Origin: Periconia sp. R9002
Lineage: Eukaryota; Ascomycota; Dothideomycetes; Pleosporales; Periconiaceae
DNA: 64,000 nucleotides
Direction: 5' to 3'
Assembly: GCA_023627715.1 (NCBI GenBank)
Contig: JAMAHW010000110.1
Coordinates: 1-64,000, forward strand
A model generated the notes under the pieces. It did not search any database. It worked only from the letters and a program-made list of their open reading frames with translations, and was not told the origin of the DNA. The position numbers and the translations under genes are program-made. Positions 11,207 through 15,653 of this stretch are shown here, one piece after another. Positions within the stretch are counted from its first letter, which is position 1; each line of letters begins with the position of its first letter.

Positions 11207-14200
11207 TTACCCACCACCACCCTGCCTCTCCCCCGCCAACTGCCGCGGAAACCCACTGATGCTAAACGTCTTATCGCGCTCCAACTTGGTCGGGCTCGGG
11301 AACGAAAGCGTCACATTCGCCGCCGACCGCTCGTTCGGGAGATGCAAGCTCAGATCCGGGAGCACGAACGTGCCTTCGACGACCATTTGCTCGATCACGG
11401 CCGGCGTGATGGGGATCTAGATATTTATCAGCATTTTTCTCTCTATCCTCTATCTGTCTGCATGGAGTGATTGATTGATTGATTGATAGGGATTTGAGAG
11501 GAGGGTGAGGGAGTGGGGGAGACGTACGACTTTCCGCTCCACCTCACTATCTACTTGTACGACAAAATACGGCGCCGCAACACCCCTAACATGCCTCCTC
11601 AAAAGCTGTCCCAGCCCTCTCAAATCCGAAATCTCATTCGACACGGAATCAAACCGACACCGGATGGACCCATGGCACGTATACCCCCCCGCTCCCGCCT
11701 CATCCGCCGAGCAATTCGTCTTCTTGAAGTAAAACGTGCTCGCAATCAAATGCAGCGCGAGATCCTTGACCGTGTCTTCGAAGATACCTCGCGGTGTGTT
11801 GCGGCTGAGCTCGTCGAGCGCGTCGACGTCGTCGAGTTCGGGGACGCTGGTGAATTCCGGGTTGAGCCGGATGTAGCGGGCGTCGACGTCGAGGGTGGTG
11901 GTGCTTTGCGGGTTGGGTGAGGTGGTGGTGCCTGTGCGTTCTTCGAGGAAGACGCGCCAGGCGATTTCGGCGTCGATGATGTTTTTCATGCGGCTTGTCT
12001 GAAGAAAAGCAAAGTTAGCGATAGAATGGGGTAGGAGGCGTTGCAGTTCTGGAGGAAAACGTACTAATGCATCCCAACTTCGAGCCAGCCTCTTCACCAT
12101 GGGGATGATTTTCTGCTTTTTGGCCGCGCTCACGACGTGCCGGCGATTACTATCGATGCTGGATCTGCATCTCTAGTCAGCAAATTTCCCATAAACGGAT
12201 ATATGAGGTCTTCTTGCATATCATCAGCGGCAGTCGAATCCGCAGAGCTTTTCTGAAGTTGCCACTCCCGATCCGTCTCCTCATCCGTATCGCCCTGCTT
12301 CCCCGTGCCAATCGACACCAGAACGTCCGGCGGCAGTCTCGCTACATCGTGCCAGAGAAGCCGCGCCTCTCGATACGCCACCCTGGCGGGATTGTTGTTG
12401 TAAAACGCCCCGTCCAGGTACTCCCGATTCGTTTTAGAGTCCCAGAACGCCGTGAAGTAAGGTGGTGCGGCGGCGGATGCAGCCGCAGCTTCCCAGAGTT
12501 TGAGCTCCTCGTTGGGATCGCGGGGTCGACGGAAAACGTGGTGGGCGTAGTTTTCGCCCTGGCGGTTGTAGTTTGCTATGATGATTGCGTTGCGGGCGAA
12601 TTCGTCGGTGGATGTCACGGCGACTTTGGTGTCGTAGCAGCGACGGCTCTTGTGCTTTGTGCCGCCAAAGATGGCAGCTTCACCGAGCGAGAGCCTCAAG
12701 GATTTGTAGAGTGGCTCTGCCTTGTACATGCTGCCTCTGAAGATCGTGGCAGGGACCTTGGACCGCAGCGCGAGGTACGTTTTGCGCTTCGTGAATGCGG
12801 TGCGGCAAAGTTCTGTGAACTTGTCTATGCATTCTTCGACAGACCAGTCGAGCACCCCCAACGCGAGAGCAATAATCGATCCGGTACTGTACGATTGGTG
12901 AATACACGATTATGGCGGAAGGCGGTCTTTAACACGCACCTAGTTCCAACAATGAGGTCGAAGAACCTCTGGACAGGAACCGCATCACCGAGCTGCTTTT
13001 GAAGCAGACGAAGCACCTCCAGCTCGATAATACCGCGAATGCCGCCTCTATACTCATGTTAGAATAGCACATCCCAACGGAAATGCCGACATACCCATCC
13101 AAAGATAAGATCCTAACCCCTGCAAAATCAGGCTTCAACCGGATTCTACACGCACTGCGCCATGATTCATCATTCTCATGCAGCGGGCAAGACGTGAGCG
13201 TTAGTGTAGTGTCGTCTTCGCGTGTGCCGAAAGACTGCGCGCAGTCAGAACACAGCGTATGCGCGCAAGGCAGAGCATGTTCGGGTGAATTCATCAAGCA
13301 GCATAGACAAGCCCAATGGCTGACCACCCTATACCTAGCCTCGAATTTCTTGTAAAAAGCTCCCATCCTCTCTTTATGCAGCTTCTGAAGCTGTGTGTGA
13401 CCCGCTTTACTGCCCTCCGCGGCTTGGTCGATGCTGCTTTGAAGTTGATCCTCCATCTCAGTGAGCGACTTCTTGATAAGTTTTTTGAATTGGTCGCGAA
13501 ACCCTTTTATATTGAGCCCGCTGGATTGGTAACCCCCCGAACCAATGATTTTTCCTTTGCCGTTCTGGTGGCCTTTTGAACTGTGGCGGGTGTTTACGTT
13601 GACGCAGTATTCGCCCTTTTTCGTTCGGAAGCTGCAGGGCATTGCGGAGTTGCAAAACTCCTCCAAAGCGTAGGAAAAGTGCTTTTCGTATTCACTGAGG
13701 GAGTCCACCGCCAGACCTAATCGAGTAAGTTAAAATTTGCCAACGAGATGATACGGAAGTCTACCTTTGCGGTGTCTATGAACATCAAGCAAGACACACG
13801 ATGCCACCATCGAACTCATCTCCGTAAAAACCGCATCAGTCGTCGGCCTCTCCTGTTGCTTATCGTAGGACGCGTAAACCGCCTCCGCCAGTTCCAGTAT
13901 CCTCCCGCCGAAATTTGCCGGTATCGGATTCACCTGAAAAGACACTTTTTTAAAATCAAACGGCTCGTCAATCGTCTTTCGAAAGTGTTTAAACGCCGCC
14001 TGCAAGTAGACCTGCAGCGCCTCGGATGTGAATCGCAGCCGGGCCCTCTCCCTCGCCTGGCGGGAATCATTACAGCACTCGACAATCTGCCCGCGAAGAG
14101 ACTCCACCTGGCGCTGCAGGATGCTGTAACGCCCGCCACGAGGGATCGTAACGACGTGAAACGCGCCATAGTATCGTCGGATGAGGTCATAGACGGACGT

Positions 14201-15653
14201 GATCTTCAGACCTCGCTGTTTCCAGAACTCGGTGTAGACTTGGAACGATGGGACTCCGTGCTGTGGATGCAGTGCATTGCTGACGCTTTCGAGCAAGCTT
14301 GCCGTCGCCTTTTCAACGTCCCATTCGCTTTCGTCCACGTCGATCTCTGTGGCGTTTAGTGCTACGATTGCACGCGGTAAGGCCGGCTGGTTGGTAGACT
14401 TCTCAAGTGACCTGAATTCGCGGGGACAAAGTCAGTTTGACTCAACCAGGGGTAATGCAGTAGGCGGACGGAGGTCTCAAAACGCCACGCCACGTGGTGA
14501 CTTGATACTATCTCATATCCGGGAAAAAGTACATACCTATGCCCCCATTCGAGCAGGTGCTTCAACGCGCCAGTCTGAAATGTTCTATTCCCGAATAAAT
14601 AACTATTTCCTACCCTTATACGTGGGTCATCTTATCGGGCGGGAGCACTTACTTCGCATTCCTCGAAACAAAAACAACAACATCCGAAAACGTGTACAAG
14701 AGCCGTGGATACAGCTCCCGCACAGCGAATTCTCTCGTACATCGCTGCGGATCGCCAGCTTTGGGGTCCGCCCACGCAATCTCAAGATGCCCTTTGGTAC
14801 GTTCTCCAGCCAATTTCATCAACTCAATCGCCTCGCGTCCCAGCTTCTTGCGCTTCGCTATGGGCGTTTCCTCGCCGCCGTTGAGCCCCTCGCAGTCTGC
14901 GTAAAGAAGAGGCTTGTCGCTGTAGAAGGAATCCGGATCTGCATACAGATGGACATCCGCGGAGGTGGGTATTTTGTGGTCTGTACGCGATCCACAGACT
15001 GGCGCGGGGAAGGGACGGGTGTCTTCGTCTTTTCCTTCGTCCCAAGGGTCGTATAGTTTGATGAGCATGTTGATGAGCGTGCTTTTGCCAGCATCTGCAT
15101 CCTTGTCAGTAGTCATATAGGCCCAAGAGAGATCAATGTGCTCACTAGTCTCTCCTACAAAAGAAACAAGCTGCGGATACTTCGCATCAACATTCTCCCT
15201 CGTACTCTCCGCCATCAACGAGACATAAGCCCCAAAATCCTCTAGAACAGGACAATCCGTCTGATCCTTCGTCCAACCTACACACACACACCATCAGTTC
15301 GACACTCCACACCCTACCCCATCCACTTCAAAAAACTCACCAAACCAAGTCGACCCCTCATCAATCTCATGCAGCCTCCTCACCTCCTCATGGTCATTCG
15401 TCGGGCTCAAGATGGCCTCTAGCCGTTTCGCGACATGGTAATTGATCTTCTCATGCGATAAACCATCCCTCGCTGTCTTCCCCGCCTTGTGAGGGGGTTG
15501 GAATCGCCAGCACGATTCGCAGAAGTGGCAGGAGCAATCGACGCAGTACCACACTTTGTCGCTGGGGGTTTGGGAGCACCGCTCGTCTTCACAGCTTGGG
15601 GCTAGGACGGAAGAAGAGTGGTGGTCCTCGCCGTTCGTGGATTTCTCCAGCAT
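11207..15653 (-). CDS. Zinc finger-GTPase-RING-patatin phospholipase fusion protein
   Basis: I infer eleven exons on the minus strand: 15653-15341, 15277-15146, 15094-14653, 14584-14537, 14411-13765, 13716-13095, 13047-12940, 12886-12218, 12164-12065, 11998-11528 and 11416-11207 (about 1253 aa). Domains in order: a B-box-like zinc finger (about 20-60, WYCVDCSCHFCESCW); a P-loop GTPase with GETNAGKST at 146-154 and a DCEG G3 motif near 215; a mostly helical middle; a RING-like Cys/His finger (about 664-705, CCLMNSPEHALPCAHTLCSDC); then a patatin domain with oxyanion loop DGGGIRG (734-740), nucleophile elbow GTSTG (Ser771) and catalytic Asp in DGA (about 929). The catalytic dyad is intact, so lipid acyl hydrolase activity is expected. 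The P-loop resembles dynamin-like or AIG1-like GTPases. The junction between the exons ending at 12218 and starting at 12164 needs a GC-AG intron. The role (signalling, membrane attack or defence) is unknown. Confidence 0.85.
14427..14510 (-). repeat. Dispersed repeat copy A, inside an intron of the patatin gene
   Basis: It fills most of the 125-nt intron at 14412-14536, which is longer than most of the gene's other introns. A 35-nt block starting at 14427 matches 30 of 35 bases at 50170, and a 17-nt block (14484-14500) matches 15 of 17 bases near 50217. All differences in these blocks are transitions. Read on the minus strand it contains a CTGAC branch-site-like motif about 20 nt before the acceptor. 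Confidence 0.85.

What the first reader, a model, noticed from the sequence alone, without database searches (positions are those of the whole stretch)
11207..15653. Zinc finger-GTPase-RING-patatin fusion in one fungal protein
Seen in sequence: a B-box-like finger, a P-loop (GETNAGKST) with DxxG, a RING-like finger and a complete patatin catalytic set (DGGGIRG, GTSTG, DGA) in one inferred 1253-aa frame. Known: patatin phospholipases serve as effectors in several immune-type systems in bacteria and fungi, and nucleotide-binding domains often act as switches there. Inference: this may be a self-contained sensor-switch-effector protein in which GTP binding and ubiquitin-type signalling gate a membrane-damaging lipase. 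Related multidomain patatins occur in fungi, so the novelty lies in its role and in the GTPase-RING pairing.
Basis: partly seen in the sequence, partly recalled or inferred. Interest (0 to 1): 0.8.

Follow-up and report, generated by a model that had tools for sequence, protein, structure and literature searches.

The report
Fungal GBP-like GTPase, RING, lipase fusion
This fungal gene encodes one large protein that joins a GTPase shaped like the animal immune protein GBP, a ubiquitin-type RING finger and a phospholipase shaped like a bacterial anti-phage effector; it belongs to a widespread fungal family in which the lipase active site has been lost several times while the GTPase and RING sites have stayed intact.

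The parts
11207..15653 (-). whole gene, 11 exons, 1259 codons plus stop
   Evidence: exon joining; relatives of the same architecture
15341..15653 (-). exon 1; B-box-like zinc finger (C21 C26 C37 C40 C45 C48 H55 H67) at 15593..15453
   Evidence: ligands kept in 93-113 of the 97-113 relatives with a residue there
15146..15277 (-). exon 2; start of the G domain, first part of P-loop GETNAGKST (15155..15146)
14653..15094 (-). exon 3; rest of the P-loop (15094..15078) and DCEG switch motif (14897..14886)
   Evidence: K152 118/120; D215, E217, G218 120/120
14537..14602 (-). exon 4; G domain, short exon
13765..14411 (-). exon 5; Asn337 of the G4-like motif NAT[DE] (14356..14345) and helical region
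   Evidence: (N337 120/120)
13095..13716 (-). exon 6; Cys/His site C561 C571 H578 H583 (13636..13568), RING C670..H713 (13309..13178), start of patatin
12940..13047 (-). exon 7; patatin glycine loop to the first two bases of the Ser777 codon
12218..12886 (-). exon 8; patatin from the last base of the Ser777 codon; Asp935 of DGA at 12414..12412
12065..12164 (-). exon 9 (preceded by a GC-AG intron, uncertain)
11528..11998 (-). exon 10; conserved C-terminal region
11207..11416 (-). exon 11; conserved end with ISGFPR motif
   Evidence: S1244 108/109, P1247 109/109

Best explanation
The gene encodes a multi-module protein of a Pezizomycotina-wide family. Shown by sequence and predicted fold: an N-terminal B-box-like finger, a large GTPase of the GBP/atlastin/RNF112 type followed by helices, a conserved Cys/His site, a RING, a patatin domain of the iPLA2/CapV type with an intact catalytic dyad in this member, and a conserved C-terminal domain. 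Inferred mechanism: GTP loading makes the GTPases dimerise or polymerise, probably on a membrane; the assembly brings RINGs together for ubiquitin transfer and presses the patatin onto lipid, where members with the Ser (window included) cut phospholipid. In the Ser-less clades the patatin would serve as a lipid- or ligand-binding scaffold, so GTPase plus RING is the conserved core and lipolysis an optional output. Paralogs in one genome may mix into hetero-assemblies. A role in response to intracellular trouble (non-self, endobacteria, damaged membranes) is a guess.
Against: No biochemistry. The canonical G4 [NT]KxD (recalled) is replaced by NAT[DE], so guanine specificity is unproven. SMG9 scores as high as RNF112, so the fold alone does not single out a membrane-remodelling GTPase. 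RNF112's E3 and GTPase activities are reported as unrelated. No membrane anchor was looked for. In dead clades the patatin diverges more at equal GTPase identity, which also fits partial relaxation. One paralog of the same genome has an altered P-loop (GKSGVRKST) with intact patatin motifs, and the eighth RING ligand is His in only 168 of 196 relatives (E in 17). The 177 were picked by similarity to the window protein.
Confidence: 0.5

Rival explanations
1. One reading: a self-contained sensor-switch-effector in which GTP and ubiquitin gate a membrane-damaging lipase that kills the cell.
For: The window protein has the full catalytic set. The patatin NLR PLP-1 of Neurospora drives cell death and needs its patatin (PMC12881547 and PMC10197012 passages); a patatin-like protein is a het gene in Aspergillus fumigatus (PMC11138114 passages); patatin genes are enriched among those up-regulated in Podospora incompatibility, 6 of 9, P 0.0045 (PMC3689799 passages).
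Against: Catalytic Ser absent in 70 of 177 relatives with the other sites kept; no NB-ARC, NACHT or repeat domain in the window protein; 20 scanned ORFs of the window show no HET or NLR match; I could not tell whether the Podospora or Aspergillus patatins belong to this family.
Confidence: 0.25
2. A lipid-homeostasis or oxylipin-signalling enzyme (iPLA2-like) in which GTPase and RING control location and turnover; nothing to do with non-self.
Against: Repeated catalytic loss with GTPase and RING kept is odd for a metabolic enzyme; this genome holds several divergent paralogs.
Confidence: 0.25
3. Annotation accident: a GTPase-RING gene next to a separate patatin gene.
For: The window gene needs ten introns removed and has no transcript data here.
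Against: Paralog L009 carries finger, GTPase, RING and patatin up to GTSTG in one 814-codon frame; most listed relatives carry the patatin; of ten inspected that lacked the precomputed patatin match, four end at or near the DGG intron, as truncated predictions would.
Confidence: 0.02
4. A decaying gene of no present function.
For: Paralogs on C52 and C72 show degenerate sites.
Against: The window copy has all motifs and no break in frame once spliced and 69% identity over 89% to its Lindgomyces relative.
Confidence: 0.03

Closest known systems
RNF112 (neurolastin), vertebrate RING plus atlastin-like GTPase
   Different: RING lies before the GTPase in RNF112 (PMC12012479 passages), after it here; patatin and B-box-like finger are extra here
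GBP family (interferon-induced guanylate-binding proteins)
   Different: G4 is NAT[DE]; no GBP family among the Pfam matches up to E 1; carries RING and patatin
CapV / CapE, CBASS phospholipase effectors
   Different: CapV is cGAMP-activated (PDB titles); here a GTPase and RING are fused to it; many relatives lack the Ser
PLP-1 type fungal NLR (patatin-NB-ARC-TPR)
   Same: fungal patatin joined to a nucleotide-binding switch (passages)
   Different: STAND ATPase and TPR repeats there; GBP-like GTPase and RING here
Database proteins named FabD/lysophospholipase-like, patatin-like serine protein, calcium-independent phospholipase A2-gamma (some with Pfam PF28431)
   Same: these are the family itself
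   Different: named mostly from the patatin alone; PF28431 is not among the matches of the Pfam copy held here, so its content is unknown to me

Membership tests
Patatin-like phospholipase (PF01734) | glycine loop DGGGxR, GxSxG nucleophile, DG[AG] | tested here: met
   for the window protein
Patatin-like phospholipase (PF01734) | lipase activity | not testable with these tools
   needs an enzyme assay
GBP/atlastin/RNF112-type large GTPase | G-domain fold | tested here: met
GBP/atlastin/RNF112-type large GTPase | P-loop GxxxxGKS and DxEG | tested here: met
GBP/atlastin/RNF112-type large GTPase | sequence-profile match | tested here: not met
   Pfam GTPase matches below cut-off; no GTPase in the PDB profile search
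GBP/atlastin/RNF112-type large GTPase | RD-type G4 of GBP and atlastin (recalled) | tested here: not met
   NAT[DE], N337 120/120. I therefore call it GBP-like in fold, not a GBP
GBP/atlastin/RNF112-type large GTPase | helical middle domain | tested here: inconclusive
   helices follow the G domain in both models; alignments that extend into them have rmsd of about 6-16 A
RING E3 ligase | eight zinc ligands, CP before the last | tested here: met
   C670 C673 C684 H686 C689 C692 C710 H713; P711 119/119; TRIM34 and RNF141 profile hits. In the wider set the last ligand is His in 168 of 196
RING E3 ligase | E3 activity | not testable with these tools
   needs an assay
B-box | eight-ligand pattern and Pfam match | tested here: inconclusive
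   ligands conserved; best zf-B_box score seen, in relative P0211, 22.7 against 24.1; PDB profile hits to KAP1, MID1 and p300 ZZ at E about 0.02
Fungal NLR | NACHT or NB-ARC plus repeats | tested here: not met
   no such Pfam match up to E 1 in the window protein
TRIM | RING, then B-box, then coiled coil (recalled) | tested here: not met
   order is B-box-like, GTPase, RING

The most novel reading that the evidence does not exclude
A fungal cell-autonomous defence family working as GBPs, RING ligases and CapV do in animals and bacteria, but in a single chain: GTP-driven coats form on invading or abnormal membranes, mark them with ubiquitin and cut or bind their lipids, with catalytically dead relatives (lost at least three times on this tree, if Ser is ancestral) co-assembling as regulators or targeting subunits. 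Ubiquitin made by the RING may switch on the patatin in cis, as ubiquitin does in trans for ExoU.
Probability: 0.18. Interest if true: 0.87.

Novelty: new variant of a known kind. Interest (0 to 1): 0.62.

Why it matters
The fungal-immunity papers in which I looked (passages) speak of NLR, HET and HeLo-type proteins and hold no 'GTPase' or 'RING'. A large family joining a GBP-like GTPase, a RING and a CapV-like patatin would add a different kind of switch. The recurrent loss of the lipase site, with GTPase and RING sites kept, is a natural experiment that separates the scaffold role of a patatin from its enzyme role and makes clear predictions for mutants.

Tried and rejected
Separate-gene reading: rejected on the single-frame paralog. 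GTPase-RING proteins that truly lack patatin: 25 of the 120 listed have no precomputed patatin match; I inspected ten of these (nine of them also by Pfam): four end at or near the DGG intron, one shortly after the RING, two are fragments without RING, two hold patatin remnants, one (P0211) has a degenerate patatin. I found no clear patatin-free family; fifteen were not inspected. Bacterial origin: a scan of the prokaryote genome collection with three peptide patterns gave 10 stretches and one relative, L016, in a Deltaproteobacteria MAG; its frame breaks right after GTSTG, as in fungal paralog L009, and changes again before the RING, so I take it as fungal contamination. Plasmid collection: no match (only the exon-8 frame was given). 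Linkage to incompatibility genes: no HET or NLR match among 20 ORFs scanned of 76 listed; the other 56 frames, many of them overlapping or parts of this gene, were not scanned.

The architecture in print: seven paper searches aimed at it listed no paper that I recognised as describing it; three more had other aims (75 RNF112, 85 inactive patatins, 86 CapV). The library is open-access only; I read passages of eleven papers and listings with abstract starts of the rest, no whole paper. VdPLP of Verticillium (PMC5867883) and Trichoderma PLP1: the passages do not give their domain make-up, so membership is open. A family not seen in the fold lists is not excluded. The C-terminal domain (after about residue 1055 of the model) got no fold search of its own.

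Caveats on counts: relatives are those listed, 120 of 324, 120 of 216, 120 of 302; 299 distinct ones are held. The 214 of the first two searches were aligned; 177 had residues at both the P-loop Lys and Ser777 columns, 37 were set aside for a gap. The tree has 185 rows (window included), quick method, SH-aLRT support only, midpoint root; its eleven single Ser-less rows may include gene-model errors, since an intron splits this codon in the window gene; one of them, P0007, joined the Gly clade in the smaller tree. A regular-expression count on the 299 gave S 156, G 60, D 14, N 6, no match 63. The regular-expression tallies (for example GxSxG 72, B-box 85, all motifs together 29 of 120) use strict spacings; I rely on the alignment columns.

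Full report
What is there. The gene lies on the minus strand, 15653..11207. Joining 11 exons gives 1259 aa. Introns are 47-125 bases; nine have GT-AG ends, one GC-AG. The protein holds a B-box-like eight-ligand finger (C21 to H67), a P-loop GETNAGKST split by an intron, DCEG, a G4-like NATE, a Cys/His site (C561, C571, H578, H583), a RING (C670 to H713), DGGGIRG, GTSTG and DGA. The Ser777 codon is itself split by an intron (AG|T).

It is one gene. The window's own genome (42.9 Mb, 267 contigs, unnamed) has 21 patatin matches. Besides the window, three loci match nearly the whole protein: two on contig C72 (L009 and L010, about 8 kb apart) and one on C52 (L015); a fourth, on C14 (L012), matched from the RING onward. 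L009 has an 814-codon uninterrupted frame that runs from the finger region through GTPase and RING to DGGGVRG and GTSTG. This shows the fusion without any splicing inference, for a paralog; the window gene itself has no transcript data here.

It is a widespread family. Searches listed 120 of 324, 120 of 216 and 120 of 302 relatives. The nearest is P0001 of Lindgomyces ingoldianus, 69% identity over 89%; it lacks about the last 115 residues. Looked-up examples lie in Dothideomycetes, Orbiliomycetes, Eurotiomycetes, Lecanoromycetes, Geoglossomycetes, Leotiomycetes and Sordariomycetes; the other names that I recognised were Pezizomycotina too (recalled), apart from a Quercus suber record. Source names come mostly from the patatin; three records carry 'B box-type' or 'RING-type' domain names. 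At least four listed relatives carry extra domains (SPRY or SH3, one also ankyrin).

What is conserved. Among 120 relatives the P-loop Lys is kept in 118, D215/E217/G218 in 120, N337 in 120, RING ligands in 115-119 of 118-119, and the Cys/His site in 118-119 of 118-119. In contrast the catalytic position is Ser in 74, Gly in 35, Asp in 6 and Asn in 4 of 119. In the 214-protein set 177 have both sites aligned: 107 with Ser, 70 without. All 70 keep GKS/T, 69 keep the seven core RING ligands, 68 keep the Cys/His site; of the 107 with Ser, 105 keep the P-loop. The eighth RING ligand is less firm: His in 168 of 196, Glu in 17.

Dead-lipase clades. On a tree built from residues 76-600, outside the patatin, Ser-less rows fall in one group of 40 (Gly; Asp935 kept in 36; includes Hortaea, Friedmanniomyces, Pseudocercospora), one of 16 (Asp or Asn; Asp935 lost in 16 of 16; Xylaria, Nemania, Hypoxylon and others) and one of 5 (Gly; Asp lost; includes Lindgomyces P0175), plus eleven single rows. 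Fewest changes 14 against a shuffled mean of 57.0; the tree of the 120 listed first gave 4 against 36.6. The glycine loop DGGG and R745 stay invariant in 40 of 40 and 16 of 16, but not in the 5 (D740 in 3, G741 in 2). In the window's genome the C52 paralog reads GEGTG at the DNA level, with an intron at the codon that in the window is Ser, so at least this loss is not a gene-model error in a database. At GTPase identity 0.6-0.7 the patatin identity is 0.510 in the Gly clade (195 pairs) against 0.611 in Ser-Asp rows (183 pairs): weaker constraint, not none.

Mechanism. RNF112 dimerises through its G domain in the GTP cycle (PMC12012479 passages). Patatin effectors of bacteria are switched on by a GTPase partner, ubiquitin or on oligomerisation (PMC12871566 passages). 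The fungal protein carries a GTPase and a ubiquitin-type module in cis, so assembly-driven activation is the simplest idea; this step is inferred, and RNF112's E3 and GTPase activities are reported as unrelated. Because the lipase site is lost repeatedly while GTPase and RING sites persist, I place the conserved function in GTP-driven assembly plus RING, with the patatin as enzyme in some members, window included, and as lipid or ligand binder in others. Paralogs of the window genome differ in which site is damaged: window and L010 intact in the motifs seen, L009 with an altered P-loop, L015 with a dead patatin; mixed assemblies are possible.

Immune role. Support is indirect: the patatin NLR PLP-1 causes cell death in Neurospora; a patatin-like protein is a het gene in Aspergillus fumigatus; patatin genes are enriched among up-regulated genes in Podospora incompatibility, and non-NLR patatin genes are marked as enriched among those responding to bacteria, 5 of 9 (PMC4835503 passages). 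I could not tie those genes to this family. The five papers in which I searched for the words have no occurrence of 'GTPase' or 'RING'. The 20 scanned ORFs of the window look ordinary.

Verdict. Observation confirmed; interpretation partly supported; a new variant of a known kind, with the recurrent loss of lipase catalysis as the most surprising result.

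Noticed in passing
L016 (NYXK01000209.1): A Deltaproteobacteria MAG contig carries a relative of this family whose frame breaks look like fungal introns: probable fungal contamination of the MAG.
   Followed up: partly
P0026: A protein filed under Quercus suber sits inside the fungal Gly clade: probable fungal contamination of a plant assembly.
   Followed up: no
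L009 (G000:C72:36500-46000): Paralog with the P-loop changed to GKSGVRKST but intact patatin motifs; a second family member, L010, lies about 8 kb away on the same contig.
   Followed up: partly
L015 (G000:C52:151500-161400): Paralog with intact GTPase motifs and RING but degenerate patatin (GEGTG, no DGA), resembling P0211 of Lojkania enalia.
   Followed up: partly
window residues 561-583 (13636..13568): Nearly invariant C-x9-C-x6-H-x4-H site with the motif KGHQ between GTPase and RING; no Pfam match there.
   Followed up: no
window 11207-12164: Conserved C-terminal domain ending in ISGFPR (S 108/109, P 109/109) with no Pfam match; not searched by fold on its own.
   Followed up: no
relatives listed: Pfam accession PF28431 is assigned to many but not all members; it did not show up with the Pfam copy held here even for members that carry it, so which region it covers is unknown.
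   Followed up: no
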